64,000 nucleotides of DNA, taken from positions 25,412,876 through 25,476,875 of the forward strand of contig NC_092567.1 of NCBI RefSeq assembly GCF_037975245.1. The letters are read 5' to 3'. Within the stretch, counting starts at the first letter, position 1; each line of letters opens with the position of its first letter. This document shows, piece by piece, positions 26,421-63,800 of the stretch. The notes below the pieces were generated by a model, which made no database searches, was not told the DNA's origin, and saw only the letters and a program-made list of their open reading frames with translations. Source of the DNA: Apostichopus japonicus. Taxonomy: Eukaryota > Echinodermata > Holothuroidea > Aspidochirotida > Stichopodidae. Both the position numbers and the translations under genes were made by a program.

Positions 26421-27873
26421 GATATAACATTAATCACCATATGTCGATTAAAGTTAGATTCTTAGACTAATAATCGGATTTCTGGATATAAGAGAGATAA
26501 AGCAGGTCTACAAGACGATACAGCTATAAACACGTTGTACATGCGCACAATAATCAACCATAATAGATAATAAGGGATATGTCAAGTGGTTACACCTGTC
26601 ACGTTGTATTTGTTCCTATATACCATCCTGATATATTTCGATTACCCCAGCAGTTACTTAGCTCAACGTGTAGGACTTGGGGGGGGGTGGGGGAGTGGGG
26701 AGGTAGTGCAAAGATTTGGAACAAGGAGAAATTGTTCTTTTTTTTGTGCGAAAAAAAAGTAGGTACTTTTGCGAAAGTAAACTTTCTTAGCACGTCATTT
26801 CCATCTACCTAGTCTCTACCACGTGCATTCATTAAACGGTGAGGGGTTGTGGGGGGGGGGGTGGCGGGGGGGGGGGGGTTGGGGTGGGGGGTATGCGCAT
26901 AGATAGTTGGTAACACCTGTCGGACTCGGAGGTGTGGTCTAATTCTTCCCCAACTGAATGTTAGAAAAAATGAGAAAAAACAAAACATGCCCTCATTATT
27001 CTCCCCCTTTGTGCTTATCTTGCAATGCTCGAACGTATTGGGCTACAAAGTAACGTCACCTTAATTGCTCTGTTTTAGCATCCATACTTCTTAAGCATAA
27101 ACACTGAAGGAAGAAACCTAAGACATCATATTTAAAACAAAATATCAACAATATGTCGAATGTTCAGGGACTAATATCATCTGAGTGGTAACCAAATCTC
27201 AGGAACGAGGATCGAAGGGTCGAATACGGGGTTGGGGCTCGGGTGGAGATGGATGAGTGTTTGTGTCTGCGAGGGTGTAGGGGGGGGGGTTATGACTAGG
27301 GGTTTATTTGCTCAAAGGTTCAATAAATTTACTAATTTAAGAGGTTACTGCATGGCAACTTCATTTCTTCACACCTCACTCCTCTCTCTTTCTGACAACA
27401 CAACTGACTTGACCTTATTTGAAGTATTCACCTATATCAACGAACCTTTATCGTCCTCGATTGTTTATTTGTTTGAACACGTGTCTACTGTTAATTTCGA
27501 AGAGATATTCGAAGCAATGGTATAGTTTATATATACTTTAGAATTAATACGGTACTGCTGTTACTTTCCCGTGCTGATAAAGTCACCAGCCATTGTTGTG
27601 TTTTGTAAACATCAGTCTAATTTGACCGATGCAGAATGCCACCCATCGTACACAAAACCTATCAAAAGTTACATAATATTCTATCAGGTTTATTGAGAAG
27701 CAACTTCGAACAGCTGAAAGGCTGCCGTAGTCTCATAACCGAAAACAACAATTAACATATTTTTTTTTCTTTCGCGTTCTTGACGGTGGTCAAGCTAAGA
27801 TTTTGATGCGCTTTGTGCTTGGTGAAGCAGTAGATTTTCCGTTCATTGAAGTGAGAAAGTGAATTACTGTAAA
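26421..27873. other. Gene-free stretch upstream of the first CD73-like gene
   Basis: Contains G-rich low-complexity tracts (26679-26702, 26843-26891 and 27223-27290). No coding exon is seen. The open frame at 27232-27525 is uninformative. The promoter of the gene starting at 27874 presumably lies here, but I cannot place it. Confidence 0.4.
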
Positions 27874-33689
<5,816 letters not shown>

Positions 33690-36972: not shown

Positions 36973-39900
36973 ATGGAGCTAGCTGCTTTTCTGCATTACC
37001 TTATTGTTTTGGTTCATGTCGTCATCGTTACGTCATTCGACCTCACGATCATGCACACCAATCATATTCAAGCACATTTTGAAGAGTTTGACTCCCATGG
37101 CCTTACGTGTGAGGATACTGAATCTAGCTACAACGAATGCTTTGGTGGAGTAGCTAGGAGGTTCAGTAAAGTTAAAGAGATCAGAGATGAACAAAGTAAC
37201 ACCCTTCTACTTGATGGAGGGGACCACTTCCAGGGTACCCAATGGTACACATATTACAGGGGTAACGCCACCGCCCACTTTATGAACTGGATTCAATACG
37301 ATGCCATGGTGAGTTAGATTTAATATAACTTAGTAACAAAGAAACATTTAAGAAAAAAAGACCCAAATAGAACAGTATCTCTCCTTCCCAAATATAATCG
37401 CTATATAAATAAATAAAATATGATGGTGATACACACCTGACGATGATCACGCAGTCACAGTCCCGATGCAAGGGGACTGGGGTTGAGAGCGGATCAGTCG
37501 TTCGGATGTTTGCTTTATCGTCTTTCCTGGGTGACTTTTCTTACAAAGAATCCCTTGTTTTAATCGTAAACCATCACTGGGGTAGAGTGGATAACTTTTC
37601 AGGTTTTTTTTTGGGGGGGGGGGTGGGGTTAAATGTATAAACCCTTGCATTACTCTTCGAACTAATACACTGTGTTCTTTTCTCCATAGGCTCCCAGCAA
37701 TCATGAATTTGACGATGGACCGGATAATTTTGGAGCTTTTTTGGATAAAGTAAACTTTCCTGTTCTTAGTTGTAACATGGATGCTACAAACGTACCTGAG
37801 ATGCAGGGCCGTTTTAGTGAAAGTATCGTTCTGGAGATGGATGGAGAAAGAATCGGAATCGTCGGCTACACTACCACAGAGACGAATACTATATCTGCGC
37901 CAGGTATGTAAACGTCGGTTAACCTGTTTTATTACCAGCTTACCGTTAGTCGTTTTGTTTAATACACAAAAATTAAATTTCATTTGTTAACTTTGAAAAT
38001 TTCACCAGGAACAATAAAACATATCATCTGAAGGTCGTGGACTTTAACCAGTATTTTCACATCTCAAGCAGTCCTGTAAAATTCCAAAATGAACCCAAAC
38101 TTTAAATTGATTATCCTCTCGACGTGGAGTGTAACTTATTAACATATACTCATTAACACGTTAACGCCTTACCAATACTCGTCTGTAGTGCGTTATAATA
38201 TCGAGGTATATACTATGTATATAGTAAAACAGTAAATATAGATAGCGGTGTTAGTAGAAACCAAATTTTATCTTTAGTTCGTGGGGTATTTTAGTTTGTT
38301 TCAAAGCTGTGAAAACACAGGTAACAAATTGGCTCTGTGCTTATGTAAACTGAGTCTGGCTATTATGACCTTGAATATCAAGAGCCTCTATGTGGATTTC
38401 TCATGAATGCAGATAAATTTTATAAACAATTCTTACTCAAAATTTGTTTTGAAAATATTATTGATCGGAACAATCAATCAGAACAAGATAATGAGAGGTG
38501 AGGCTTTTAAATATAGCTTTCAAGTTACAGAAAATATTAGGCAAGCATCGAACACGAAACTTCATTCTTTACACTTTATGACGTCATTGCGATGCTTTCC
38601 CTATAAAGTTACGTGACCTTCGGCGTAAATGAAAATAAACAGAAATGAAATTGTTAATTATTGGTAAGGTCTGTCTCAATTTTAAATAGTAATTCAATAT
38701 CTACCCACAGCACGTTCAATTCAATTTAATGGTCAATTCAATGAACAAAAACCTAAAATACCGTAGCGAAACTATGTCATTTGAAAAGCCTATGTAGGTC
38801 TTAAAGGGAGTGAAGACTCGCCCCAAACCGCGTGCCGCCCTCTGAAAAAAAGGTAAATTTCCTCATCTTGAAAGTGGAGTTTTTTCTTGTCGCTACAAAA
38901 TGCAGACAGTAATGAAACGTGATACTTTTATCGTTATCTTTTATCTGGACCTGAGATGTCCATCGCTGCTATGTACACTGTGTTGTGGGTATTGACCGTA
39001 GCTGCATGTATTGACTGTACACTAGTGTCTTATTACCGACGGGAGCAAGCTGTGTGCGTATTTTCTGGGATCGATGGTGGTATCTAACACTTCTGTTACA
39101 CCTCATTCGAAATTAGGTCAGATAACCGGCATCAGACGTTTCTTTGTGCGCGAATCTTCACTCCCTTTAAGCATAGGTTTTTTGCGGCCGCTACTTGAAT
39201 TGTAATGTATAATTCTGTCAAATTAATTGGTATAAAATCATTACATAAGTTATTTCCAATCTATAGTGGCAAATATATTCTTTTGCCCACACAACTTTTT
39301 CTAATGAAGAAAATATTCGTGCAGTGTTATTGTTATGGCTGAAATATTTCATCTTTCCGAGAGCAAAACACATTTTTCCCCTTTTCAACGTGAGAAAACC
39401 GTTTAGGATTGTCTTGATAGCAAATTATCTGTGTTTTTGTCTGTTGTGGAAGTTACACGCTTTTACGAGGTAAATATGTGACTCAAACGTCATCAATTGT
39501 GCTGTTGATCGTTCCTCTACTCTGCCAACAGGTGCTCTAGATATTAGTGATGAGATATCGGCATTGCAAACCGAGATAGATCGACTCAAAGCTGACGGTA
39601 TCAACAAGATTATCGTTCTCGGTACTTCCGGCTTGCAAAAGGAAACTGAGATTGCGCAGAACGTTGAAGGTGTTGACGTCATCATTGGTGCAGATCACCA
39701 CCAATTTCTTTACACAGGTAATTTAAAGAATTCACACAAGGAAACATTACAGTAAATACATTCATGATAAACTTTAACAAGAGTAGTAAAATGATTTTTT
39801 CTTATAACAAGAAGTACAACGAACAGTAAATGTTTTGTTTAGGCTGCGAAAAAAGTACAAGCCACACAACGCTATATAAATTAGTATTAGTAATTAGTAT

Positions 39901-42900
39901 AGAATCATTGGGCCTATCATGGTTAAATATTATATGACGTCACATCGACGTAATCATCGTTTTCATCAACCACAAACATGATGCTATATACTTGATTTAT
40001 GTTGTAAGTGTGCTAGCTGTATACAACCGTTATTTTGTGCAATTTTTAAACCTGTTTCCAGGCACGTAGCCAGGAATTTGCCTAGGGAGGGGCGAACCTG
40101 TAGGCAAACTATCAGAGCCGTAGATTCTGCATTGAAAACTATCTAAGCGTAGCGCCACCGTAAGTTTTCGCTACGCGTACAAAAAAAAGTTGGCTGAAAA
40201 TGCCTCCCAGATCGCTGGAAATGGCACTTCCCATGCAGGCCTTGTAAGTTGCATCTAAGCTTGAAATGACTAGCGATATCATAAAACATACAACAAAATA
40301 TGCTCAAGGGGGGGGGGGGCGGTTTGCCCCCTTAGTCCCCCCTTGGCTACGCACCTGCCTGTTCCAGCATAAATATGAATATAGAAACTTTTTGTAACGT
40401 CAGAAGTTACCAAAATTTAAAGCTACAGGTTAAACTATCACACAATTTTCAAGTATACTTCAGTTTGAAATGCAAGATTACATAACGGTAAATGAAATCA
40501 TTTCTGAAATTTGTATGCTATATATTGGCAAAGTTATGATTATCTCTAACATTTCTTTGAAACACTCAACAGCCCCGGGACACGATATGTACTTTCCATC
40601 CATAATAACTTTCTTGTCATTCTGCTGAACTCGATTCGATTTAGCAGCTACAGTTTTCGACTTCAAGAAGTGAAGCATAATCTTAATGAAGTATATTTAG
40701 AGTATAGCAGAAAAACTGAATCATACCGTATTTTTATTTTCAATATCAAGGAACCCCTTCCACAAGTGATGAAGTAACTAGCCCTTATCCTACCGTCATT
40801 AGACCAACCACGGAGAAGATTGTCTTAATCGTGGAAACATCTAACTTTGGACAATATCTTGGCTACCTCCAGGTAACCTTTGATGATAATGGAGACATTA
40901 CAAATTATAACGGAAATCCAATACTATTGGACTCTTCTATTGAACAAGGTTCGTTAAATTACGTTGATATGTTATGTATCTATATTTTGATACAAATTGC
41001 TCTAATAAAAATGGGGCCACACACCCGGTTTGAAAGTCCTAGATCCATCTGTGAACGATATCCCGGGTCCTACCTCAGCAGGCCCTCCTCTGATAAAATG
41101 GGGCCACCCATCCCTGTTTCAAAGTCCTGGATCCGTCTGTGAAGGGTATCCTGGGCCCTCTCTCAGCAGGCCCTCCTCTGATAAGCATTATTCAAAGGAG
41201 AATGAAAAGAATCATGAAAGGAAACCTATTTTGCTACTTTTTGTATCCCTATTCGAGTAAGAGATTCCCATTTGCCGGAATAGCTCCAGATTTCTTGTTT
41301 TTGTAGATAAAGATACTTTAGCAGAAGTGAATAAGTGGGCGAAACCAATCGGAGAATGGGGTGAGCGTTTAATAGGAAACACCTATGCGTACCTTGACGG
41401 AGCCAATCCGAGTTGCCGAGCCAATGAATGTAACCTAGGTAACATGGCAGCTGACGCGTTTCTATGGGAACACGTGACCGTTCAGAATGATGGATGGAGT
41501 GACGTCAGTATTGCTTTAATAAGCTCCGGTGGTTTAAGATCCTCGATACCAGCAGGTAAACATTTCTAAAAGTGACAAATATGAATTTATATATTATGTA
41601 GATTATGCTAATATGTTATGTTATATTTTTAGCATTGATATGTTTTTTTCATATTCATCGCAACTGTATATTTATTTATCAACCAAAAAAATAATAACAA
41701 AGAGAGAAACTTCAAAAGCCACTTAACTATTAACTGTGTGTTTGCCGTCATCATGCAAGAATTGCAGCCACTTACACCGCCACGGTGGTGGCAGTAGGCA
41801 TGAAGTATTTTGGGCAGAAACGGTGAAGATCATAATTATTTAAGTTAGATTTCATGTTCATTCCTCAGGTTTTGACAAAGTTTTTTTCTTTCCTTCTTTT
41901 CGTAATGTGACCTGACCTCGATATTCTTATGTCAGGTCTTCTCTACTTCCGGAATGTTGTAAAATAAATCAAACAATTTGTAACTAGTACAAAATGATCA
42001 TACCCTATAGGCTTATTTTGTTCTTTTATATGAGTATACACATGTCCTCATTAGCTTATATATGTTGCCCTATAAATGATTGTATGAGTTACTCTCGATA
42101 TTGTTTGACTTCAGGTGAAATCAAGTTAAATGACATCACGACCGTGATGCCTTTCTCTGACACTGTTGACCTAGTCGAGTTGAGAGGTCATCATCTTCTT
42201 GAAGTTCTAGAACGTTCCGTCGAGGAATATGATCTCATCATTTTACCCGGATTCTTTCTGCAGTATTCAGGTATACATTACCTTATTGCGCCTGTAAAAT
42301 TATATAGTACCCTTACCTAAATACCTCATCGATTTTCCATTTAATTCCATTTAACAGGTGACATTAATTAACAAAGGTGACGTCATGACCTCGCTCCCAA
42401 TCAAAACATATGTAGATTTAATCGGGTTGAAGGGTTATAATTGTTTTGTTTTTTTCAACTCAGTCTGTGGAAGAATATGATATTGTGAAATTGTCCGATT
42501 TGTCATTCAGTATTCCGTTAACGGAGTATAGGCCAACATGTGTAACCAACACCTTCAGGTGACGTAATGTCACCATCATGCTTCCTTGCTTACTCCCAAT
42601 GAAGATATCCGCGATAGACTTTGTACAAACCCATTAGTTTATATTGCCATCTTGTAAATCCATCGCAAATTTCCTGATCAGCATGTTTTCATTTTTTCCG
42701 AACAAAATCGGCCACTTCAGTCCCAAATCGGCCAGATTTAGTCCTTCATTTGTTGCTGTTAATTCTATCATGTTAATAAAACGACTGTTGATAAATTCTA
42801 TATATATGCAGGACTTCGCGTGACGTACGATGTAAGCCGCCCAGCTGGTAACCGAGTAGCCTCTGTAGATGTCTTGTGTTCTTACTGCCCAATTCCGTTC

Positions 42901-46829: not shown

Positions 46830-49060
46830 TCTCTATTCTAAGGACAAAAACGTTCAGCAAAAAAGTTTTTAAACAAATCTGAATTTACATCACACAAAAT
46901 TGTCAGCTGAACAACAACTGAACTGTGAAGGCTTGCTCACTACTGAGGAATGCAGCGATGCGCTTCAACTATGTCTTTGAATAAAGCACCTTGCCCAGAA
47001 GGCCTTGTCTAATTTTATCTACATTTTGGGATGATGAAGGACTAATCGTGAATTCCTTGAATGTTGAATTCCAAAGGAGTTTTGTGTCTGAGCAAACAAT
47101 TCATTGATATCAAATCCTTCTAAAGATTATAGGTATCTGAAGAATTGGAGACCTTTTGCCTTGCTGAGTACGTATTACAAGATTGCCTATGAGTGTATTG
47201 CTTCCAATATGACAAAGGTTTTGCCTCACATGACAAGTCATGAACAATCCGACTTCTTGAAATGGCGCCTTATAAGCGAGAATATTAGATAAGTTCTTGA
47301 CCTCATCTGCTATTGTGAAAAAATATTCAATTGAACGAGCTTCTATATTCGTAGATTATCAAAAAGCATTTGATTGTCTACATTAGGGCTTTATCCAAAA
47401 TTATCTGCTCTATTTATAATTTTGGACCAGACGTTAAGTATTGGATCAAATTAGTGTATATAAATGTTTGTTCTTGTGTCACAACAATTATTTTAGGCCC
47501 TCCTTGTGCGTTCGTCAAAGGTGCCCTCTAAGCCTGTATCCCTTCATCACTTGTACGGGATGTCTACTTCTATAAATTATATTTCAGTTCAAGGCATTTC
47601 TCTCTCTAGCGTTACTGTTAAATATCACAGTATGCAGACGACACCGTCATAATAACAGATCGTTCTGAAAGTTTCATTCAGGACATTTTCAATGTATTAA
47701 AAAGGTTTCCTCAGCCTGATGTCAGAAGGTGATGTCTGAAGGTGAACTTACAATAGTCACATTTGTTCCCGCTTGGACCCCTTGCACCCAACTATCTAGA
47801 GTTACATTACTAACTTTAACGTTAGTGTTTACAGTGATTCTATTTAGCATGGAGAATTTCATTCACAATCATGAAGGGGATTTTCCCGTCTAATTAGGCT
47901 CCAACCTCAAGAGGATAAATGGTCTCCTTCATAGTCTTCACGTGATCTAACTCCTTCAGGAAAAATTTTAATGATAAAGATGTTTGCAATCTCTCAAGTT
48001 GTATACCTCCTTACTTTATTACCTGCCCCTCCTGGTCATTTTCTAAAATCTTTAAAAAGGTTCGTTTTCAATTTTATCTGGAGTAATAAACTGCGTGATA
48101 AAGTTAAACAAACTGTTTTATGTAACTCTAAGAGTAATGGAGGTTTGAGTATGATAGACATTGCAACGTTCGATTAAAGTCTCAAAACAACAGGCAGGCT
48201 AACATTTCCAGGGATGATCATTATAGACCATGGAAAGCTCTCTTTTGGGGTATTTTCTAAAAGAAGTACGGCGGTAACTTAATGTTTAAAGTTAATTTTG
48301 CAAAAAGATGACATAAAACCTTCAAATACGTTATTGAACCAGGTATGTGATGCCTGGTCATGTTTTATTGTGGTTAACCTTGAAAAAGATTATGGTAGCT
48401 AATATGTTTCAGACAACTCCTTTATTAAAATTATAAGCAAAGTAACTTGAACATTCAAAATTTAAAAGTTCACTTCTGTCCATATGTCAAAGAGTCCTCT
48501 TACCTTTATAGAACCTTATTGAGAGTTAAAGTTTCTAAGCCTTGCCACATTTTAAAATGGAAGCAAAATTATACAAATATCACATGATGCTGGAACAAGC
48601 ATATTACATTTTTTCGCTTCCGTACATAGCTACAAGAGAAGCAAAGATTCACATTCGCTTCTTGCATAGGATACTAGAAGTGAATAATTGCTTGTGTAAA
48701 TTGAATATCAAAGATTCTTCTCATTGAACGTTTGGTAATGATAATGAGGAGACATTGTAGATCACATATTCTGGGTTTGTCCTCATGGTTATCTATTTTG
48801 GAAGGAAATATTTAAGACTGCTTGAGATTAAATTATAATCTAACACAGTACAACATTCACTTTGGTGTTATTGAAGATATTAAACACCCTATTAATTTTT
48901 TTCATGCTCCACGCGAAAAACGATATCTACAATACCATATATGAAACCTTATCAACAAACGAATTTGCAAGTTAGAGATAAAGCTCGATCATTTGAAGAT
49001 TACTTGTTATTTTAAACTGGCAACACTTGAAATTATACCATTTTCAAATTGCCTCATGTA
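46830..49060 (+). mobile_element. Decayed Tx1/L1-like LINE, second ORF region
   Basis: Pieces of a reverse-transcriptase ORF appear in order but in different frames. They are CEGLLTTEECSDAL near 46926 and NWRPFALLSTYYKI with a degenerate QSDFLKWRLISENIR motif at 47140-47292. FGPDVKYWIKLVY follows near 47430, then a YADDTV-like site near 47630. ISQVVYLLTLLPAPPGHFLK, FNFIWSNK and NGGLSMIDI are at 47987-48170, and a C-terminal part lies at 48542-48727. The FNFIW and GGL.MID words are typical of the Tx1/L1 group in aquatic animals. Several frame changes and stops separate the pieces and the 5' part is missing, so it is an old dead copy. Confidence 0.85.
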
Positions 49061-49588
49061 GAACTATATTATGCCACATTCATCTCTCACCAACCGTAAA
49101 AGACCTTTGGATGTGTTTTTGTCGATATCAAAATGAAAGTAAACAAGTTAAGTTGTTTGCCTCAATATCGTAGCTGGGTTTATACAAACAATATATATTC
49201 CATGGCCTTCATTGTGTGCTAAGTTTATGGCTCAGTGTCATATTGAAGGATATGTCATCTTCACTGCGCCGATTGTACCAATTGGAAATAACCCACGGCC
49301 ACAATGACGATAATACAAACATTTTTAAATATGCTAAAATGGTCACAATAATTGTTCTATTAAACATAAAATATAGCTTGCCATGAAACTTTTTTCTCTG
49401 ACAACCTTCATTTTTACAACTTTCGTGGTAATATAAATTGAGGAAAGCAGTAACAGCTCAAGAGATGCAGCGCTCCCTTTAAAATAACATTTACAAATAT
49501 TCGTCAGAGCAATATATGTGCTGTATTCATTGTTTTCCTTTCCTTTTTCTTTTGAGGACCCTCAATTAAACACCTACGTTCTAGAACA
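49061..49588. other. Spacer upstream of the Ig-NACHT gene
   Basis: AT-rich, with no coding signal. The promoter and 5' UTR of the gene starting at 49589 should lie here; I see no clear core-promoter element. Confidence 0.4.
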
Positions 49589-52500
49589 ATGGCGAAGACA
49601 TTGTTCCACATGATGGTCGCTTTATTGTGTATTTCCTGTGGTAAGTCGATAGTGGTTCTGTATCTGTGTCTCTGTGTGAAACTTCTCATAGGCCCAACGG
49701 TTTCAGTGTCGTTTGTAAGCCTTGCTTGGAAGTCCGTAGGATTCTTGGAGATAAATATCGTTATGGGGTCAACATCTGTCTGATTCGGATCTTTGACCAG
49801 CCTGATGGGAGATGGGTCAGGGGTGGGCTATAACCACAGGCCCTGGGTATATTTGGTGGCTGAAAAAAATCCAGGGGCCGCGAAAATAGGGGATAAATGG
49901 GATATGTCCAAAGAGGGGTCCCCGGGGCACAGAGGGTCACCATGGGGCTTAGGGAATATGTGATGCTATATATCATAATGGTTAATACTATGCAACTTGA
50001 GGATCATATATTGATCTAAATATAATTAAAAAACTAGATATCAATGCCTGATTGCTCTGCATACTTCACTGGAGCACTTTTATGCATTTTGCCACTGAAG
50101 AATTATTTAACACAACGAACCACGTGTATTATTTTCCATGAATTCCCTTTTATTTTCTTGTCTGTCTGCAGGTGTCAGTTATTCCGATGTTTGTAATTCT
50201 CCACAATATCTTGAAATTGGAACAGAAGGAACAATCCAGTGTTATTTTCCCAGTGACTTCCTATCCGTCCATTGGTATAATACCACGGATTTCAACAACG
50301 AGGAGCCAGTGTTAAATTATCGAGATTCAGAGAAAAGTGGCAAAGGGTTCACTTCTGGAGAGTTCGATATTCATCCAAACGGATCACTTATAATAAACAA
50401 TGTGACATTGCAACACGGCAATTCGTTTGGCGCCACATTATTTTTGTCCAGAACTAAAATTCCCGATACGTGGGTTATTGAAGTGCAAGTTATTAGTAAG
50501 TTCATTGTTTGGATTTATTTTACGGTTCTGTTTTATAAATTTGTTTTGTTCATGTACTTTCCTTTAATTTTAAGTATTGAACCATCCGCAGTTATTTTCA
50601 CAAATATAGCTTACTTATAAATTGGCAGGAGAATATTAAGATCTATGTAAAATATAGATTTGTTATGTTAGCATAAAACAGGAAGTTGAGCACCGACATA
50701 ACCACGGTGGCTAGAATCAAATAAATACAATATTCCAGAGTAAAAGGTGATTCGAGACCAGCAGGGCAAAACCCCTGGCGTATAATAGCTTGTAGTTAGC
50801 TATACGTTCATACATATGAACCTGTTCGATGAAGTGATTCTGCGATAAAATCCTGCACTAGCTGTTTGCTACCACTTCGTACTCGTCAGTCACACGATAG
50901 AAAAAATACTCCTCTCATTAAAGAGATTCTACTATGCAGTAATGAAAATATTGTAAGGTGTTTACAATTGTAATGGTTTAAAAATGTTTAAGATAAATAC
51001 CCACTTCATCGATAATTTTAAATATGATCATTTATCATACATCACTGTCAACTAAAATTTACAACAATTTACTACAATTTCTTTCTCCCATGTATAGAGA
51101 GGCCTCATCACCATTTTCCTCTGATAAACGGAACACCCGCAATTGGTGAGGCTGTCTTCCTCACAGAAATAGAGCACATTACAAAATTGACATGCCTCGT
51201 TGAACATTCTCGACCATTAATCCCATTGGAATGGAAAATAAGAGCAGGTGGAAGAGACAAACCTATCACATACACCAATAGCTCAGATGTGAAGTATTCG
51301 TTATATTCATCGACTGCGTCGGTAGAATATTCCTTCCAGGGCCAAGATTACCTGGCAATTCTTGCTTGTAGAGCTTTAGACGACCCGTTGACACTTCTAA
51401 AACGAGACGAGTCACTTTTGGTAGTTCAAAACAAAAACATGGATATAACTAACGCCCCGCAGAAACATTCACCTGTCGAAAAGGGCACTAGCTTATATTT
51501 AGAATGCTCGATTGATGTCGAAACAGCAGTCTGGAAGAAAAGAGATTCGAAAAGCACTTACCATGACGTTGCGGTTTTTGTGAAAGATGTTATAATAAAT
51601 GTATTCATGGAAAGTGTGACTGTCAACAATAACGGATCCCTGACCATACCGGATGTGAAGATACACCACGATGGTCTTTATGTGTGCATACATGAAGGTG
51701 GTGAAGAAATCAAAGTTCACAATGTCACTGTGATTGGTAAGCTGTAGTATAATCACTAAGTAGTTCTGAGAAAGGTAACTATTCTTCATGTCGTGTAAAT
51801 ATTGTTGAAAGGATGTAGTACTGAGTTCACTTGTTGTATACATCCTTCGAGTCGTGTATGTACAATATATACGCGGCAGAAATTTACATTGATGACATCT
51901 TGGTGTGCATAAAATAGATTAGAACTTTCATCCATTTTTCAATTATATACAAACATTTTGAATGATATTTAAAGTGAAATTTCTGAAAGTTCAACTTAAG
52001 AAAACAGTCAGAGAATACGTTTCGTACATTACTCCCGTTGATCCCAGCAGAGATTACACTGAACTATATCGTCGTTGTTCATTCGAAGGTATAAGTTTGC
52101 AAACATATAGTTTTAATTTATTTTCACATGATGTCCAAGGTTTATTCTCATGCGAAAATCAATGACTTTTGGCTTGAAACCTTAAACAGTTAAAAGATAT
52201 TGATTCTCCTTACTTCCCATTTACTTCCCCACAGTTCCAAACTGTCTCCCACTTTACAACCTCTTTATCGTATTACTAAACAACATGGTACAAACTTTAC
52301 CTGCACAATCATATATTTTCTCGACCTTTACTCCTAATAATAGATACACAATGCTGTACTCCCTAGTGTACGCAATAATTCTACATTTTCTTCATTCACT
52401 GATTCATTGCTTCTTCTTTTTGCAGTGCTTCCCACCCCTTCTTATCCTGTCGTAGAAAGATGCAACCATGACAAGTACTGCGTTTTGGAGGGTAAAAACG

Positions 52501-54307
52501 ACGGAGAACTTTTATGCAGAGTAAATTCGATACTACCCGTGATTCGCTTAGAATGGAGAGCCTATGACAGTCCCGAGATGATTACATTTTCCAACCAAAC
52601 AATCACGATAGAAGAAAATGGCGATCTTTACGATATATATCTCAGAGCCAACTATCAAATTCAATCAGAGTTTAGCAATAAGCAAATCACATTGGAGTGC
52701 TTTGCTACAGGAGAAAATTCTACTTACTTCGATCTGAACACTAAAATAGACCTGTTCCTTACCGATTGTAAGTCACGCTATTCTACATTACAGTATAGTT
52801 CTGACTCAAATATTGAAGTAAAGAAATTAATATTATTTATTGAAATGAATTGAATCATTTTCAGTGTGAAATCTTAAGGCTTGCCTCATCGCGTCCTTGA
52901 ATTTGAAAACACTCTTTAAGATTAAGACTTTTTTTCTAATCTACACTAACTCGCTACAAGCTGCTATCAGCAGCCGCACACAATATTACACTTTATTAGT
53001 TCATAGATTGCGACGTGGTATCAACATCAATATGTCTTGCCATAGTAACCTTAAGTAAGAATATTCCACGACTTGTGGAATCCTGTTGCAATACTGTACT
53101 TAAGTCAAAATAAATTTCTTGCGTTTAGATTCATGATTGTTTTCTAACTTTGCATGTTAGTTCACTAAGTTAAAACCCAATGTTCGTACTAAAGTTTTTT
53201 TTTTGCACGTTAAATTCCTTTATTTACGTCATACTACGAGATCAATATAATTTTATATATTCATGGGAACTACTTTGATCTGCGAACGTAAGTATGCAAA
53301 GTATGGCGGACAGGAAACTCGACATGCGCCAGAAGGTGGAGACGGACCATGCGTCTCCATTAGTCACGAATGAGAGAGACGTGACTCCCTATTTAATACC
53401 GTAACATGTTATAACATACTACCTCATTCATAAAATCAAATTCAATGTTAACTAAAATGATACTTTTTGCAAACATGATGTAACTTCACCCATGTAAAAA
53501 CATAATCTAATGTACAGAATGTATTTCAGCTATCCACAGTTTCTCAATTGTTTCTTGATAGTGTTAATTGAAGGCAGGAAAGTAGTTACTTTCAGCTCCA
53601 TATCTGTTGCAGTCGTATTGGTTATAGCAGTGATTTTTATTATCATTTTCTATTGTGGTAAGTAATGGCCTTTAGTTGACACTGTTATTTACGTACGCGT
53701 TGAAGTATAGTACATATGTTATATTGCACAAGAATTTCAATCATCACGTCATGTTATTTGCTTTCCGAACATAGCTGTATACCTCTCAATTCAATAAATT
53801 TTTTTAATGTTTCTACAATCACTTCACAAGTCCCAGTTCCGACAAGTCTCCTCTCGAGAGTTACTAACACAACAATATAATGTTCTTTCTGTCTTCTGTA
53901 AAGGATTAACCGACCATCGAACGTTGTCTTATCTTACTATATATATAATCATGTCATTTGCTGATTTTTGGAACAGACGTACCCATAGTAAATACACCGT
54001 CCTTCTTTACTTATGTACACAAATAAGGATACTTATATGAGGACCAATACTCAAACTATTGGTTGTTTATCATTCCAGATGGATTTATGGCTCCCATGCA
54101 TTACACATACAGTAGTAAAATGTTAGAATTGTCTTCATTTCATTATATTTACCAAAATGCTAAACCTCAGTTCTGGGTTCGTTTCTTTGATAAACATATC
54201 AAAACTGCAGGGTAATATTTGGTAAACAGTTGATGTTGTTTGACAAAATTTACGAAAACAATCATCGAATATCCTATACGCTATCAATTTCATAAGGATA
54301 TTTAGTG

Positions 54308-54375
<68 letters not shown>

Positions 54376-57300
54376 CACATGGTTTGATGGAAACATTTCT
54401 ACAAGGCTGCACAAGAAGAAATGGCAAAGTTACCAGTTCCTGACCATACAACCTACGTTGTTAGCTTGTAAATGCCGATCTATGTAAAGTTGACTATGCA
54501 ACGTTTCACTGCATTCGCTGTTAGTTCTTACCTTTGAGCCATTGTATACTGTAGAACGAAGGCTTCCGTGTAACACTACTGTCGCGTAACATGGTTTTGA
54601 TTGCTTAACTCCTTATCATTCCATTCATAGGTGCATATAGGTATCACACAAGGTAATATATTGCGTTATTTAGGATCGGTGTTTACGCTTAATAACCTGT
54701 ACGCTAAGTAAGAGCGTCAGTAGATATCACATTTACGACTACACTATCTTTCAAATTTTCAGTGGTGAAAAGAGCAAGAGCTAGGAAAGCTAGGAAAAGG
54801 GGGAAAAGAACGCAATATGCAATGGTAAGATTTATGCTTTTATGACATCAAGAGGAAATGAAGAGGGTCAGAGAAGTGTCCTCGTCTATCACATACAGGT
54901 TTAAATGTTCTGTAGGAATTGTCGCTTTGGGAACGTGGCATAACTTTTTTTTGCTATTAACATTATTATCCGTTTATCTTAACCGATCGATAAAGTAATA
55001 TTGTATAACCTTTTCCTATGATCATATCATGGTGGATTTAGATTCAAAGGATTTTTTCTTCATAGATATGTTACAAATATACCGTCGCATGTCAGTTTAC
55101 AACTCATCGTGTGTAAGCCTAAATATCGTCGTTAATAGCGATGTTTTATCTGTAGCTTTATGTTTCATTCTTGCAAAGGAACTTGGTGAGACGACATCGC
55201 ATGAGAGAGACTTATTGATCGGGACAAATAATAAAGGTATGTTCGTACTGCTAACAAAGAGAAATGATATAAACAATGTCATTAATGGGTCATTTTGCTG
55301 TCAAGTGAGTAACTAATTCACGATAAACATATAACCATTGAACTATAAAATTGGAAATTGTTGTGCAAGTAAGTCTACAATGAATCGGGCAAATGGGTAA
55401 TGTTTATAATTCTGTCAGTAAATAAGTGAATTAATAGTCTATACGTCTTCTCCAACAGAGCAATTCATCGAACAGCTAAAAACAACTTACGATGACCAGT
55501 GCAATTCAATCCAACCAGTTCCATATCTCAAAGATAAACGGTACCGTGTGAACGATGTATTTGTTGACGGAAGTCTCAAAATGAAAACGTCTAACTCTTT
55601 AGATCGTAACAGCATGTCTGAGTCTCGTATAACATATCGTGATATATTTGATGACTCGCCAGAAAAAGGCACTCGGTATATTATTGAAGGCCAGCCAGGT
55701 TACGGTAAAACAATATTTACTCTTCAGCTTGCGTACGAATGGTGTAAGAATATCAAAAAGTCACCTTTAAGAAAATTTAAATTGTTGATTCTCCTTCGCC
55801 TTCGTGAAGTATCAAGTGGATTATCATTCTTTGAAACAATCAAGCAATTGTTACTGCCAATAGACACATCACTTGATGTATCGGAAATAAATAATATTAT
55901 TTATCAGAGCAGTTCAACTTTAATTGTTCTTGATGGATATGATGAGTTCGTTGACATAAGGACAAAATCAGACATTAATGATATTATTGCAAGAAAAATG
56001 CTGCAGAAGGCCACAGTCATTCTTACCACAAGGTCAAACAAATTGCCCGAAGCATATCCAGCACAAGTAAATCGCATAGAACTGACGGGATTCGACAAAA
56101 TGTCACAACAAAACTACATGCGAAAAATTCTAGGAATTGACGATGGTGCTGTGCAAAGAACAATTGAAGATTGTCTGAACAACCCTATTCTTGACGATAT
56201 TTTCAAAGTGCCACAGTGTTTTGCCGTATTTACCGCACTCATTAAACAAGGAGATATCCATGATGGGCTTAGTTCCGTCGAGTTGTTTCGTTACGCTATT
56301 GCAAGTTTCCACTACCACTTTCTAAACAAAGGGAAAATTGACGAAAATACAATTTTAGAAAAAGTTACTTACGAATTGGAGAATAAAGAGCTGACTTTGC
56401 TTGCTTTTGATAGTCTGTGTGAATGTGAGACATACAAATATTGGAAAAGGAAATCTCTAAGTGAGAGACTTGGAGAAGAATGCCTGGAATATTTCATAAA
56501 AGTAGGAATATTGATTGAAGATGACATTGCTGCTTCGCTTGATGAATCGGATTCTGGGTTCATAGGAAAAGGCCAACGAGTGAGATTTTCTCATAATCTG
56601 TTTGCAGAATGGTATGCAGCTCAGTACGTGGCAAATAGTATCTCATCATCTACAAGAACAGAGACATACCAAAACAAAGACAATTTTCTGTACAGTCTTG
56701 ACCCATACAATCTAGAATATCTTTTTCGCTTCGCATGTGGTCTGAATGAACGTGCTGCTGAAATCATTATTGGATATCTAAACGAAGTTCGGAACGAGAA
56801 AAAGCTGGCAATATTGTGCTCTTTAGAACAAAGTGGAAACGTTGCAAACTTCCGTAAAATTATCACTGATCTTTGCAAAGAAGTAATTCAAGTTGATTCT
56901 CTTGATACCAAACTTATGCAAAGAGCCACATTGCAACTTCTAACCATCGCAGCCAAAAGCAAGGTGAGTTTCACAGATCAAGTTTCTCGGCTCAGATTTC
57001 ATGAAAATTATACTTACATTACAAACTATCAAAACTATGAGTAACAAGTACATCGATCAAGGACTAAATATATTCGTATCGATGGATAAAAGGGGATAAC
57101 TGAATACTATCGATAGTTAAATGATTTCCATTTGAAACTTTTTCATCTTAACTAATAGATTCCGATTTTGTCTCTATCACTGGATGAGTGCTTGCAATAT
57201 ATTGATCATGATAAGGGAGAAATCTACATTACATATGATCTACGGATGCCCAATTTGGATACTCTTCAAAAACTTACAATCAACGACAAGAGAAGAAGAT

Positions 57301-60300
57301 TCTCTGAAGATGAAGTCAGTGGTATACTGAAGTTTTCATCGAGATGTTCGAAACTAGAATGTTTAAGGTTAGTTTTGTAAGTCAACATAATGGAATTACG
57401 TCAACGATATACCTTCCCGGGCATAACGTTCCACTTTAGTTAGACGCTACAAAGACAACTCAGGCACTGCTCGCAAACATTCGTCTCAAACTGGGATTTA
57501 AGAAAAGGCCAAAAATTATCTTCCAAACGGATGCAGGAAATGTAAAAAAGAACAGCGTCGCTATAATTACTGCATTGAACTGTCATTTTCTAATTGACAT
57601 TCCAGTTATGTTGAAACGCTATAGTCGACATTATAATAGTTCATGACGATAGGTTTTATGGTTGAGGTAACTATAGGCCTACCTACAAAGAGGTTCGGAA
57701 GCTAATCGACCTTTTAAATCGAAAATTGTTTGCTTCATTTCAGGTTTGAGAATTGCTTACTTCCACAACGCCTCAAAGATCCGTCGCTGAAGAGTCTGAA
57801 TGGTAAAGATAATAGATCATATAACATTGATAAAAATATGTTAAAAGCTTCGGAAAAGTCTCTGTCCTAACAAAAATCAACAGCAACATAATACTGTGAT
57901 AGCAGACATACAATTTTTGAGCTATAGTGAATATTTAATAACTATTGGTGTAGTTGTCATTAACGGATAGGGCTATATAGCTAACTGTACCTTGCGGGGC
58001 ATACAAATTAGCGTTCGTAGCCAATATTGTAATAGTTACCTGAATGCATGGTCACCATATGTTGTCATGCTGAAAAGGTTTCCAATGTACATTCTGATAC
58101 TCCAAGTGAATCCCTGACATTAAGATGCGTTCAATAGACAGTTACATGTCTCTGTGCATTTTAGAGTAGTAGTAAAATGCTTGTTCAGGTTAGAGAATTT
58201 TGGTTTATTAATTAACTTTACAGCCTTTTTTGGGACAGTATGGATGACCTATAGTTAATCTGGTGAAATCATGATTTGGTTACGTAAAACAAACAATGTG
58301 AATTCTGCTTTAGAAGAAAATATAATTTTATTGCGTTAAACATTTAACATCATTACCAAAGGGTGAGAGATATATTCGATATTCCTACAGATAGTGTTAA
58401 TTGAGATATTGACTATTTACTAATGACTTGACATGTTTATGTTTATGTTGTAGTGCTTTGGTGTGCTACTGGAACCTGGTACAAGCTGGATAACGTATTA
58501 GGCACATGGAAGGTTAGTATATAGAGTGGGAAAATACTTTGTAACCTTCTCTGTCCTTTCACGGGGCGTATACATACCGGTTGAGAACATATTTGATTTC
58601 TACTTTTCATAATATATTTACACCTTATCGCAGCTTTTATTGCATCAATTTTTCCTCAGAATGATAACATAGATACAGTGGAACAAAAAATGGTTTTAGT
58701 GATCATTTTGAATGCTGTCAAAGTGTTTGGCGTTTTGTTCTTCATACATTCCTGGTAAAGTAAACATTTATCAAATTTGCTAAATGTCATACTAGATATA
58801 CTAGATATATAGATAAAATAGATATATATATATAGATATACATACTAGATATACTAGATATTATGCAAAGTCTACCACAATGTATTGGATGGCTTTTTCA
58901 TCTCTATAAAGCAATAGCTACATATCACACATATACAGTAAGTAACGGTGTTTGTTACGTTTGCAGTCGGAGCGCCGATTTCAGGTATTTATGTGTAATC
59001 ATTTCAGTTAGCTATATAGTGAAGTAGAACGTAACCACGTAAAGGAAATATGCTCATAACATTATTCAATTTAGCCTTTAAGACTCAGTGAAACAGATAC
59101 ATAACAGCTTACAATTTATTTCTTTTTCAGACAAAAGACTTTGAGAAAACAATGACACAAAGAGGGTATGATAATGAGGTAAATTTATTCATTTGTGATG
59201 CGATGTTATCACTGAACATCACTTCATTATTACGAGACTGATGTCTTGGTTAACAATATTTAATATTGTTCACTGAAATCAACTGTTCTAAAATGGCTTT
59301 GGAAATTCAATGTGACCGACACCAAACCATCGTATTTGATGGAGTTAACTGCCATGAATACCTTCACTAATTAGTTAAGAAAACATTGGATTCTACTTGT
59401 AATGGGAGATATCATATATTAAACATTCCTTCACATGCAAGGTTGAATACTTGATCAAGTCTGGTTATCTCATTATGAGCCACTTGTTTTTCAAGATTGC
59501 TTTTTCTCATTTGGGAGACATCACATATTTAATATCCGTTGAAACAAAAGGCTGAACACTTGACAAAGTCAAATATATATTTATTGAGCAACATTTGTTT
59601 CAATGTTTGATGCCAATTGTTTATATATTCTGTACTATGAAGATGGGTTTGGCAAATGCTAAATCTGAAATATTGAACCATGTAGCCTGACATTATGAGG
59701 GTTTTGGTACAGTGCCAACATTGTAGACACTTACCTTAAAAATGTGCATAGTAGGCACCAGTGACTATGTGATGTCAGTTTCCTGGACTTGCTAAAGGTT
59801 TCAGTAAATAACAAGCAAGTCAAATGATAACTGTGTGGGTGAGTTGTTATATGCATCTTTATGACATAGATGGTTGGACTTCCTGCTCTATTATAAACAT
59901 ACAGTTGTAGTGTGTAAGGGTTACATGTTGAGCTATGATTCTCGGGACTGATTATATTGTTGGTTGCCTACAAATGGTCCAGAAATTACCTGCTCTTCAT
60001 TACTAGAACCACCCAAATTTCAAAAATATTAATATTAATGAGTATGTGCTGCAAAGAATGAAACACAATTGGAGGTAAAAAATGAAACATGTTATTGCAA
60101 GATATTAATGATAATTTGATTGTTTCAATTTATTTATGGTCTTTCTTACAAAGGTCAGTTTTTGTGAACAATTCTTGGATTGGTAAGTTTAAAATCATTT
60201 TTTCCATATTTTGCTTCCTCGTGCTTGTGCCAGCACCTGCACATATCCCCTCCACAAAGATGCCACCTTGTGAATATTATGCTAGCATTATCTCATTTAC

Positions 60301-60876
60301 TATGGCACACATATAAACGAACAATATTTTAATTTTTGTATCCCACACTTACAACACTGACCGTTAGCTTTCAATGGATTACAGCGTGTCTAGTTGTTGA
60401 TTTTCTTTCATTATGTAGGAATAAAGGGTTCCTTAAGAATGCAACAATGCTTTTCCTTAACATACAGCAAAGATGTTTTTAAGAATGTCAAACTTGTTAC
60501 CGGAACTCAAATACCAAAAACATTAATTTCATAACTTAAACGATGAGCAAAACTCTCCGTTTTAATATTTGGAAAGAACGGATCCCATTGATTGCGATTT
60601 TGAAACTCAGCGCCTTCAATGAAATTATGTTGGAACAAAGAGACAAATCCCTCGTAACATCGTCGTTCATATCACGTCTCTTGCAAAGTTATATATTATA
60701 TTGTATTATCATTTGCTAAATCACAGTTGAAACAAATCAATTGTAAGGATAAAACTATTACTTTAATTGTCTCGTTGGTCCTTCAGATGACGCTAGTCAG
60801 CCAATGCAACGCAGTCACCAAAGACGAATTGTTCGTTAAGATGAAAGGACAGGAACATTATGCTACTAATAAATAA
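49589..60876 (+). CDS. Membrane receptor with four Ig-like domains, a TM helix and an intracellular NACHT domain
   Basis: Exons: 49589-49640, 50172-50495, 51098-51736, 52426-52767, 53562-53657, 55066-55236, 55459-56963, 57159-57367, 57744-57802, 58454-58512, 59131-59178 and 60787-60876. Phases agree throughout, giving 3594 bases and 1197 aa. The order is signal peptide (MAKTLFHMMVALLCISC), Ig-like domains at about 22-124, 130-232, 236-337 and 340-450, and a TM helix (about 461-483, ISVAVVLVIAVIFIIIFYC). An unassigned helical linker follows (485-541), then NACHT with Walker A GQPGYGKT (about 619), Walker B LIVLDGYDE (about 696) and sensor TTRS (about 731). VPQCF, RVRFSHNLFAEWYAAQYVAN, an LRR-like piece and a short tail complete it. 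NACHT NTPases oligomerise in innate-immune and cell-death pathways; here one would sit beneath an Ig ectodomain. Function is inferred. The TM-to-NACHT junctions are the least certain part. Confidence 0.85.
50172..52767 (+). other. Ig-like ectodomain exons of the Ig-NACHT receptor
   Basis: Three phase-1 exons encode four Ig-like units. Ig1 (50172-50495) has IQCYF, WYNTT and NGSLIINNVTL, but HGNSFGATLF stands where DxGxYxC is usual, so the second core Cys is absent. The 51098-51736 exon encodes two units. The first has KLTCLVEH, LEWKI and AILACRA. The second has LYLECSI, VWKK, NGSLTIPDV and HHDGLYVCI. 52426-52767 encodes Ig4, with LLCRVN, LEWRA and LECFATG. Several N-x-S/T glycosylation sites are present. 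Confidence 0.8.
53562..53657 (+). other. Transmembrane exon of the Ig-NACHT receptor
   Basis: 96-bp exon, phase 1 on both sides, encoding LLIEGRKVVTF and a hydrophobic helix ending FYC. Donor is G|GTAAGT. It can join 55066 or 54763 in frame (see the cassette exon). Confidence 0.85.
54305..54372. repeat. (TA)n microsatellite
   Basis: About 30 TA units in the intron after the TM exon of the Ig-NACHT gene. Confidence 0.95.
54763..54824 (+). CDS. Candidate cassette exon encoding a very basic juxtamembrane tail
   Basis: Good acceptor (TTTCAAATTTTCAG) and donor (ATG|GTAAGA) flank a 62-bp segment open in the phase left by the TM exon: VVKRARARKARKRGKRTQY. At 62 bp it ends in phase 0. Splicing on to 55066 then reads out of frame and stops after 16 more codons. 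Inclusion would thus give a receptor without NACHT, and skipping the full receptor. Alternatively an unseen small exon in 54825-55065 corrects the phase. The basic stretch would suit a stop-transfer sequence. Confidence 0.6.
55459..56963 (+). other. NACHT-domain exon
   Basis: Single 1505-bp exon for the whole NTPase core and its helical partners. Walker A GQPGYGKT starts at 55689 and the Walker B LDGYDEF region near 55929. Sensor-1 VILTTRSNKLPEAYP, a winged-helix-like part with the FKVPQCF motif and the FSHNLFAEWYAAQYV motif follow. The Walker A lysine and the acidic Walker B residues are intact, so nucleotide binding looks possible. One large NACHT exon is also usual in animal NLR genes. Confidence 0.93.
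57159..60876 (+). other. LRR-like and C-terminal tail exons of the Ig-NACHT receptor
   Basis: 57159-57367 encodes MPNLDTLQKLTINDK and CSKLECLRF, which read like one or two leucine-rich repeats. Exons 57744-57802, 58454-58512, 59131-59178 and 60787-60876 encode a tail of about 85 residues with no recognised domain (LPQRLKDPSLKSLNG, LWCATGTWYKLDN, TKDFEKTMTQRGYDNE, ending ATNK and TAA). The LRR part is far shorter than in typical NLRs. The small exons are called from splice sites and phase alone, so they are less secure than the NACHT exon. Confidence 0.6.
58786..58860. repeat. CTAGATATA-rich simple repeat
   Basis: Short runs of CTAGATATA and GATATATA in an intron of the Ig-NACHT gene. Confidence 0.8.
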
Positions 60877-63800
60877 AAAATCTCCTCAAACATTGCCTGA
60901 TATCACCCTGGTGTATGAGATCAGATTACCAATGTTGATATTGTTTTAGTTAACGTTGAGTTCAAAAGTGCTGGGTCAAAGGCTCAAAGCGTGTTGTAAA
61001 CTGTTGGGCTCATGTACCTAAAATTGATGGGTGTTTGCCTGTGCATGGGACCACGTACATCCGCGAGTGATGGCATCATACCATCAGCATCCAAAGGTCA
61101 TATCTGCAACGGGGATCTGCAACTCCATGGGTTGCCCACGTGTTTCGCATTTGGAGACTATTAGAACTGAAAGATAGGTCTATGACATTTAGCTAATCAA
61201 TTTAACATTGCGATGCAAAAAGATGTTTGTTCTATGTGTGTATTTAATTTATTTTGTGTTTCACTTGATGTTCAGTGTAAGTAATTTTATGGAAATTGCT
61301 TCCATTAGCATTTTATATCCCAATTTCCTAATTTCTTTATGGTGCTTAATGATGAAAAAATTATGGATATAATTTTTTTTATAACGGTGACAAATAGAAA
61401 CTTTCAATACTGCTTTTAAATTTTTAAATTGTTATGTGTCAATATATGTTTTCATATTGTGTTTACACCAGATAAAAAATAAATGTTAACACAGTTAAAG
61501 CACTGCTGATTTTTATTCTATTTTTTGCATGCACTGTCTCAAAACTGATTACATACATTTTGCATTCTATAATACATTTTTTTTCTAATTCCATGAAGTA
61601 ATTTTAAATACTCGTTTCCAATTTTCTCCGGTCTAAAGGCTGCTACCTCCCGTGTATGTGTATGCTCGTGCGTGTGTGTGTGTGAAAATTCTTACTTGAC
61701 CATTTTACAGAAATTGCAAACTTGATACCTGAAAATGCCGAAGTCTGAAGGAACTGTGATTTCATTTAATTTTTTTATCAAGTTCAAGTATATTTTAAAT
61801 GCAAATCCAATGCTTATTGTATGTCTAAAACTTATTTTAAATAGTCTATCGAAATTTGTCAAACAATCAAAATGAAGGCTGTCCATATTTTTAAGAGAGG
61901 GGGTTATGTAAGCTAACTAGAAATATTTCTTTTACTGTTTTGAAACGTGGAACCCAAAATTGACCGTTTGCTTACAGCTATGTAACTAACATGAGTGTAC
62001 AGTGTGAAAGATCATATAATGTTTCATGTCTGCGGTATCGATCCCTCTTCTACTTCTTTGTCTACAGACTGAGTAAAATCACGAATACATTATACATCGA
62101 AGGATGTTTTGGGGCAGAATTTGTGGTGGTATGTCATTAAATTAACAAAAATCAAAGAGATTGGAACATTTGAAAGCTATAGTAAGATAGCTATTCCAAT
62201 TTTTGCCGGAAGATATTCATTATTAATATGATTATTGTCTTCAATATCAGTCTGTTGCCATATAAATTATAATAACGCAGCACAACAATGTTCTTTTAAT
62301 GTTATAAAAACGAAAGAGCGAGCCTGAATAACATCAAACACCAAATGTGTTCTTATGTAATGCTTGTAAATAGGTTATTTAAGAAGTTCGACGTTCTTTT
62401 TTTCTATTGTGTTTTGTGTTGCCTATGAGCAGATGATCTAAAACCACACGTCGAAAACAGAAGAGACGCAGAAATACAAATACATCTTGTGCCAATTTAT
62501 GTGTCCAAAATGACTTATTCTCAAGGAAACATCTCAAGGATTTAGTTCCCCAAGCCAACCCTTCGTTCCAACCGAATGTCAGTCGGGAGGGGGGGGGGGT
62601 ATCTTGGTAACTTCGGGTAGAGGATACGGAATACGGGTCCTATGAATTTATGTAAGGTAGGTTACAACGCCTATAAGTGAAAGGATTGTGATTCTAAAAA
62701 CAAGCTATTAAACGTTTCAATTGATTTGATGACGATTTATTCTTTTCTTTTGCTCTTAAATGAATGTTCAATCGAATATGAGTTCAATCAAGCAATAAAT
62801 TTTACAAAGCGTGTCACTACTTAAATAAAATGATTGTGATGTCTCATTCAATTTAAAATCAGATCTTACGATTCTTAGCGATGACGAAACTCGCCTTTCA
62901 AAGCTCGAGACATAATACTATTATGGATTGTTGTATACAAACTGAGCATTGGTGAAATTGAAGATAAAAATGAGATTAATAAGCAAATTGTTCCACAGAG
63001 CCAAGAGAAAATGAAACTAAGAATTTCCAATCAAGCTCCGCCTACAAGTTTGCCGAACACCTTTTATCAAAAGTCTAATTTCTGGAACGGTTATATATGG
63101 TTGTTGATAAAATGTACAATGTCTTTCCTTGTTCTTATAATCAGACGTGAGAAAATTGAGTAAATATCTTCCAGTAATGAATTAAAACCATTTGGACTAA
63201 CACCAGTCAAATGAGCATACAGATTAAATTATATATATCATACTCTTGCATAGAACTAAGGCAGCACTTAACTATCTAAAATAGTTGTTTCTTCGGTCCA
63301 GCCTCCTCCCCCCTCCCAAAATTATGAAAAAAAAGAAAAGAAAAAATACAGACACAACCAGCAAGGAAAAAAAAAGAAGGAAAATGAACCATACACTTAT
63401 TAAAGAACTATACACAGTGAGCCAAATATTGCAACACGTATCTTATTAAATTACATGAATGTTTCTGAAAGTATTGCTACAGCATTTACACGAATATTTC
63501 AATGTTCTAGTATGTTCATATTGCGTCGTACAGTATTCTGCCATCTAAATACACTTTGAGCATGTTTGTTCTCGGTTTGTTGCACCAATGTCAAAGTAGA
63601 TGATGTCGAACATTTCGTAAATCTATTTCTTTTCAACCGTTAACGTTTAATGGTGGACATTGCTCTTATTGCTTTCTTGAATCTGATGTGGTATATGATT
63701 ACGTAATTTAGTGTATCCAACCCATCCGGATGTTTTGAAGGGATATGCTGATGGCTGAAATTCATTGCTTAATAACATTCCTGGAAAGATTGTACAACTT

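What the first reader, a model, noticed from the sequence alone, without database searches (positions are those of the whole stretch)
49589..60876. A surface receptor that joins an Ig ectodomain to an intracellular NACHT NTPase
One phase-consistent 12-exon model links a signal peptide, four Ig-like domains, a TM helix and an intact NACHT core (GQPGYGKT, LDGYDEF, TTRS, FSHNLFAEWYAAQYV). Known animal NLRs are cytosolic sensors; plasma-membrane NACHT proteins with Ig ectodomains are not a characterised class as far as I know. Such a protein could couple extracellular ligand binding directly to NACHT oligomerisation. Domain calls come from sequence and family knowledge; the signalling idea is inference.
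Basis: partly seen in the sequence, partly recalled or inferred. Interest (0 to 1): 0.92.

Follow-up and report, generated by a model that had tools for sequence, protein, structure and literature searches.

The report
Sea cucumber Ig-NACHT surface immune receptor
A sea cucumber gene really does encode a cell-surface receptor with four antibody-like domains outside and an inflammasome-type NACHT engine inside, but this class was already described in the same species, where such receptors help blood cells engulf bacteria.

Summary
The architecture is real. The window lies in the Apostichopus japonicus genome. My 14-exon splice reproduces, letter for letter, the 1160-aa NCBI protein "uncharacterized protein isoform X2 [Apostichopus japonicus]": hydrophobic N-terminus, four Ig domains, one TM helix, a basic stop-transfer stretch, and an intact NACHT core folding like NLRC4/NOD2/NLRP3. 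"Two adjacent genes" is very unlikely: relatives read Ig to NACHT on contigs with as little as 71 spare bases.

The novelty claim fails. Ig-TM-NACHT receptors of A. japonicus were studied in 2021 and 2025 (AjNLRC4) and 2026 (AjNLR-new). This is a divergent member of a large holothurian family: at least 56 of 106 scored NACHT loci in the genome have an Ig4 exon upstream, 40 stop-free.

What I add: sequon and charge statistics favour Ig-outside/NACHT-inside and sit badly with the published inverted topology of AjNLR-new; two relatives end in Death domains; and 16 of 17 NACHT loci scored at C7 3.1-12.3 Mb keep open NACHT exons behind stop-bearing Ig exons, apparently cytosolic NLRs born from surface receptors.

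The parts
49589..49640 (+). exon 1: start codon and hydrophobic stretch, likely signal peptide
   Evidence: matches P0001; called from hydrophobicity only
50172..50495 (+). exon 2: Ig domain 1 (V-set type), phase 1-1
   Evidence: Pfam V-set; family profile E 7e-43
51098..51736 (+). exon 3: Ig domains 2 and 3 on one exon
   Evidence: Pfam Ig_3 above cut-off, C2-set below; family profile E 6e-57
52426..52767 (+). exon 4: Ig domain 4
   Evidence: not called by Pfam; strands in the model; family profile E 9e-40
53562..53657 (+). exon 5: transmembrane helix
   Evidence: Kyte-Doolittle mean 3.2-3.5; helix 466-495 in the model
   Evidence: in P0001 letter for letter
   Evidence: P0001
55459..56963 (+). 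exon 8: NACHT NTPase, winged helix and helical domains
57159..57367 (+). exon 9: C-terminal region, LRR-like by eye, no Pfam LRR
   Evidence: family C-terminal profile E 2.5e-21
57744..57802 (+). exon 10: C-terminal region
   Evidence: P0001
58454..58512 (+). exon 11: C-terminal region with the family's Y-x-L-x(4)-G-x-W pattern
   Evidence: P0001; consensus of 35 members
59131..59178 (+). exon 12: C-terminal region
   Evidence: P0001
60154..60182 (+). exon 13, in isoform X2: splices to 60787 to give a TGA stop after ...VSFCEQFLD
   Evidence: exact match to P0001
60787..60876 (+). last exon; if exon 13 is skipped the protein ends MTLVSQ...ATNK, 1180 aa in my 13-exon model

Best explanation
The gene encodes a type I membrane receptor of the AjNLRC4 kind: four Ig domains outside, one TM helix with a basic stop-transfer, and a cytosolic NACHT-WH-HD body. 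Most likely mechanism: microbial or self ligand crosslinks the Ig ectodomains on coelomocytes; ectodomain dimerisation brings NACHT domains together under the membrane; the NACHT platform then engages actin remodelling (phagocytosis) and possibly other cytosolic partners, including NACHT paralogues. Shown here: gene integrity, architecture, family membership, topology statistics. Shown in print for the relative AjNLRC4: ligand binding, dimerisation, actin binding, phagocytosis. Inferred: that this member does the same; that nucleotide-driven NACHT oligomerisation is the switch.
For: Exact identity with P0001 of A. japonicus. At E 0.01 all 35 aligned members (P0001 included) match Pfam NACHT and 32 of 35 Ig_3. 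Topology: N-glycosylation sequons 267 observed vs 134.2 expected in the ecto parts, 126 vs 136.1 in the cytosolic parts of 35 proteins; window protein 9 vs 4.1 outside and 0 vs 4.5 inside; charge after the TM exceeds that before it in 30 of 35. NACHT body folds like NLRC4, NOD2, NLRP3 and the family profile's best PDB sequence match is NLRC4. Genome: 40 of 106 scored NACHT loci have a stop-free Ig4 exon within 12 kb upstream on the same strand (lower bound). AjNLRC4 work: PMC8699970, PMC11932488. Two relatives carry C-terminal Death domains; that Death domains act in the cytosol is general knowledge, from no call.
Against: No expression, binding or localisation data for this gene itself. It is a long branch (1.59) with at most 41% identity to any of the other 34 members of the tree over the NACHT exon, and weakly placed, so function may have drifted. 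No effector domain is recognised in it. The published AjNLRC4-caspase-1 contact runs through the Ig domains, which is hard to square with Ig outside, and AjNLR-new was reported with the opposite topology (PMC13133943). Charge order is not the expected one in 5 of 35 members. The signal peptide is called from hydrophobicity only.
Confidence: 0.72

Rival explanations
1. Two adjacent genes: an Ig-TM protein and a separate cytosolic NACHT protein.
For: About 1.8 kb lies between the TM exon and the NACHT exon; an AATAAA stands at 53793, just after the TM exon, and an in-frame Met 42 residues into the NACHT exon precedes Walker A, so a separate start cannot be excluded from this sequence alone.
Against: NCBI's protein joins them. 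For 22 of 28 'lgn' relatives with the full architecture, the contig leaves between 71 and 5990 bases beyond the ORF, under 520 in 8 of them, while the window gene's introns before the NACHT exon total 4297 bases; the tight contigs have no room for such introns, as in spliced RNA. 83 of 151 fetched proteins read Ig+TM+NACHT.
Confidence: 0.03
2. Inverted topology as reported for AjNLR-new: NACHT outside, Ig inside.
For: PMC13133943 reports TMHMM topology, surface binding of recombinant NACHT and membrane location of a TM-NACHT fragment in 293T cells (section read).
Against: Sequon and charge statistics; conserved cysteine pairs C158-C216, C262-C322 and C369-C430 in Ig2-Ig4 (Ig1 lacks the second canonical cysteine); Death domains downstream of NACHT in two relatives. 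A signal peptide read as a TM by TMHMM would explain the published call (inference).
Confidence: 0.06
3. The protein is an adhesion or regulatory receptor in which NACHT is a passive scaffold, or it dampens paralogues, rather than an ATP-switched signalling receptor.
For: No effector domain recognised; long branch.
Against: Walker A, Walker B and TTR residues are intact, and invariant or nearly so across 35 members.
Confidence: 0.19

Closest known systems
AjNLRC4 (A. japonicus, MN607598; PMC8699970, PMC11932488)
   Same: Ig ectodomain, TM near residue 480-500, NACHT near 600, no CARD or LRR called; ectodomain landmarks PQYLE and FPVV-GC
   Different: Different gene: three published primers do not match the window (8 or more mismatches of 25 in 49001-61000); SMART called two Ig domains and two TM there
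AjNLR-new (A. japonicus, PIK48001.1; PMC13133943)
Vertebrate NLRC4/NAIP, NOD2, NLRP3
   Different: Cytosolic, with LRR sensor and CARD/PYD/BIR effector (general knowledge); here Ig ectodomain, TM, no such effector called
Ig V-set NLRs of the apodid sea cucumber Chiridota heheva (PMC8913654, passages read)
   Same: NACHT with Ig V-set; [quoted passage not shown]
   Different: Sequences not compared here; TM not mentioned in the passages seen

Membership tests
Holothurian Ig-TM-NACHT receptors (AjNLRC4 kind) | Ig ectodomain homologous over Ig1-Ig4 | tested here: met
   family profiles Ig1 E 7e-43, Ig2-3 6e-57, Ig4 9e-40 at the window (the window protein is one of the 35 rows of the profiles); best other full-length phmmer hit E 9e-245
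Holothurian Ig-TM-NACHT receptors (AjNLRC4 kind) | single TM between Ig4 and NACHT with basic cytosolic flank | tested here: met
Holothurian Ig-TM-NACHT receptors (AjNLRC4 kind) | intact NACHT on one large exon | tested here: met
   exon 55459-56963
Holothurian Ig-TM-NACHT receptors (AjNLRC4 kind) | membrane localisation, microbe binding, phagocytosis | not testable with these tools
   reported only for other A. japonicus members in PMC8699970 and PMC13133943
NLR (bona fide, vertebrate definition) | NACHT with winged helix and HD2 | tested here: met
NLR (bona fide, vertebrate definition) | C-terminal LRRs | tested here: inconclusive
   no Pfam LRR at E 1; C-terminus aligns into NOD2 and NLRP3 beyond HD2 and looks like an LRR remnant by eye
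NLR (bona fide, vertebrate definition) | N-terminal death-fold effector | tested here: not met
   none called by Pfam in the window protein

The most novel reading that the evidence does not exclude
Holothurians run a large repertoire of plasma-membrane NACHT receptors in which extracellular Ig binding directly nucleates a sub-membrane NACHT platform, with output either through a fused C-terminal Death domain (two relatives) or through cytosolic NACHT paralogues; and some of those cytosolic NLRs (C7, 3.1-12.3 Mb) are former surface receptors that lost their Ig exons to stops while keeping an open NACHT exon, so surface and cytosolic NLRs interconvert in evolution.
Probability: 0.3. Interest if true: 0.7.

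Novelty: new member of a known kind. Interest (0 to 1): 0.36.

Why it matters
It corrects a claim of a new class and gives an exact splice model for one divergent member. The family lets one ask directly whether NACHT oligomerisation can be triggered from outside the cell. The topology statistics bear on a conflict in the published work (AjNLRC4 NACHT-in against AjNLR-new NACHT-out). Ig-TM-NACHT-Death relatives and the cluster with decayed Ig exons are concrete, testable links between surface and cytosolic NLRs.

Tried and rejected
My first TM-exon guess (acceptor 53596) broke the frame; 53562 is correct. I tested whether the ectodomain evolves unusually fast: on nine C16 paralogues NG86 dN/dS (ratio of means) is Ig1 0.45 (5 sequences, 10 pairs), Ig2-3 0.43 (34 of 36 pairs usable), Ig4 0.43 (35 of 36) against NACHT 0.30 (35 of 36), with dN>dS in 0, 0, 2 and 0 pairs: somewhat faster ectodomains, no diversifying signal by this crude measure, and nothing on the window gene itself. 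Pfam on chosen ORFs of five NACHT loci (L029, L009, L032, one ORF each of L030 and L031) found NACHT in two and no Death/CARD, so I cannot name what the non-Ig genes carry. I tried to match AjNLRC4 to a fetched protein by its LRTD motif and primer peptides: none of the fetched proteins has LRTD and only P0143 has TPQYLEL, without the other two peptides, so AjNLRC4's entry is not in my set. A literature search for Ig-NACHT, Ig-NLR, IgNLR, NACHT-Ig, NLR-Ig gave 0 papers; the class is in print under other names. A profile search for wider relatives gave 13 proteins: 10 of the family, one with NACHT and LRRs, two Ig-only. All three large protein searches scored only the roughly 7990 candidates sharing most words, and one search listed 120 of 242, so absence outside sea cucumbers is not shown; the named full-length hits that I saw are A. 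japonicus and Holothuria leucospilota. A search for Death exons in the own genome, one with the window's NACHT exon and one with an AjNLRC4 primer did not complete.
Full report
WHAT IS THERE. The window lies at G000:C7:25412876-25476875 of a 671.6-Mb genome in 35 contigs. C7 is 26,897,543 bases long, the length of the contig that carries P0001, an NCBI protein of Apostichopus japonicus. Splicing 14 exons from 49589 to 60876 gives exactly that 1160-aa protein. The skipped exon holds VVKRARARKARKRGKRTQYAM, a typical stop-transfer stretch; without it the model gains a second hydrophobic segment, which would disturb the topology.

ONE GENE. Beyond the NCBI protein there are 28 relatives from a source labelled 'lgn' (I take these to be assembled sequencing runs; the tool does not explain the label). 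For 22 of the 28 (left out: three partial ones, P0037, P0038, P0049, and three without Ig, P0064, P0073, P0112) the contig exceeds the ORF by 71 to 5990 bases, by 71, 124 and 199 in the tightest. The window gene has 4297 bases of intron before its NACHT exon. The tight contigs have no room for such introns, as in spliced RNA, so Ig and NACHT share one message in the family. Of 151 proteins fetched in three searches, 83 have Ig+TM+NACHT, 10 Ig without a TM by my threshold, 3 TM without Ig, 53 neither, 2 no NACHT.

FAMILY IN THE GENOME. Pfam NACHT gave 487 candidates, 106 scored, clustered on C12 (45), C16 (34) and C7 (18). In 10-kb stretches around the 20 best, 15 have a strong Ig4 exon (E at most 2e-31) upstream on the same strand, one more a weaker one (L026, 5e-15), one very weak (L021), three none (L009, L014, L028; L014 contains N stretches). 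Genome-wide, an Ig4 query gave 150 matches scored of 360 candidates. Pairing 111 of these 150 rows with the 106 NACHT loci: 40 have a stop-free Ig4 exon within 12 kb upstream, 16 have one with in-frame stops, 50 none. Three sampled C12 loci at 28-33 Mb have no Ig match and score 176-206 bits with the family NACHT profile, against 598 for the window: another NLR clade.

DECAYED ECTODOMAINS. The 16 stop-bearing Ig4 rows among the 150 lie on C7 between 3.1 and 12.3 Mb, upstream of 16 of the 17 NACHT exons scored there; 15 of these 16 NACHT exons keep a frame of 510-512 aa and one 421 aa (the seventeenth, 512 aa, has no Ig4 row). Two members read in detail share two stop positions and are 92% identical over 7.5 kb. 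The simplest reading is that one receptor lost its ectodomain and the remaining NACHT gene was then amplified; whether these genes are expressed is not known. The window gene is the only scored NACHT locus on C7 with a stop-free Ig4 exon.

TOPOLOGY. In 35 members, sequons are twice the compositional expectation in the Ig part (267 vs 134.2) and near expectation in the NACHT part (126 vs 136.1); the window protein has 9 vs 4.1 and 0 vs 4.5. Mean net charge of 15 residues is -0.66 before and +3.69 after the TM, higher after in 30 of 35. For one row (P0029) the TM finder failed. This supports Ig outside and NACHT inside. PMC13133943 reports the reverse for AjNLR-new on TMHMM, recombinant-protein binding and a 293T fragment (section read).

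DEATH DOMAINS. P0019 and P0023 carry Ig, TM, NACHT and then one (1346-1418) and two (best 1468-1545) Death stretches at the C-terminus (whole-protein E 1.2e-11 and 4.5e-23). Death was found in 2 of 45 proteins scanned with Pfam (35, three further, seven, two of which have no Ig). Their contigs have 374 and 289 spare bases. I saw no mention of Ig-TM-NACHT-Death in the passages I read; I did not search the literature for it specifically.

KNOWN OR NEW. AjNLRC4 (PMC8699970) is Ig outside, NACHT inside, membrane-located, binds microbes by Ig, dimerises, binds beta-actin by its intracellular part with Kd 5.87 uM and promotes phagocytosis (abstract, sections 31 and 35, first part of 38, passages). 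PMC11932488 (abstract, passages) links internalised AjNLRC4 to caspase-1 and MLKL through the Ig domains. PMC13133943 describes AjNLR-new (abstract and start of introduction, sections 4 and 13, first part of 14, passages). PMC8913654 (passages) notes Ig V-set NLRs in Chiridota heheva and says they were not identified in sea urchin. So the class is known; this gene is a divergent member (at most 41% identity to the other 34 tree members over the NACHT exon, long branch 1.59, placement weak). Literature searches.

MECHANISM. Shown in print for a relative: ligand binding, dimerisation, actin. Shown here: intact motifs, topology statistics, fold. Inferred: ligand-driven NACHT clustering under the membrane as the switch in this gene, and recruitment of cytosolic NACHT paralogues. 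The published Ig-caspase contact is hard to reconcile with the topology and needs retesting.

CHANGES AFTER CHECKING.

Noticed in passing
G000:C7:3.1-12.3 Mb (L021, L031): 16 of 17 NACHT loci scored there have an upstream Ig4 exon with 1-4 in-frame stops while 15 of those 16 keep an open NACHT exon of 510-512 aa and one 421 aa; the two read in detail share two stop positions. Looks like a surface receptor turned cytosolic NLR and then amplified.
   Followed up: partly
P0019 and P0023 (unnamed 'lgn' contigs): Ig-TM-NACHT proteins with one and two C-terminal Death domains, a possible direct signalling output for the class.
   Followed up: partly
Possible alternative isoform or shared gene-model error.
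   Followed up: partly
27850-31676 and 36964-42320, + strand: Two tandem genes that look like secreted 5'-nucleotidases upstream of the receptor: a Pfam 5_nucleotid_C hit in 1 of 5 pieces tested (31335-31676), the rest by eye from similar pieces.
   Followed up: partly
P0125 (Holothuria leucospilota): NACHT protein with a ZU5 domain about 1000 residues downstream; may be a real fusion or a gene-model join.
   Followed up: no
47935-48174, + strand: ORF fragment that looks by eye like a LINE-type reverse transcriptase remnant just upstream of the gene; Pfam finds nothing.
   Followed up: no
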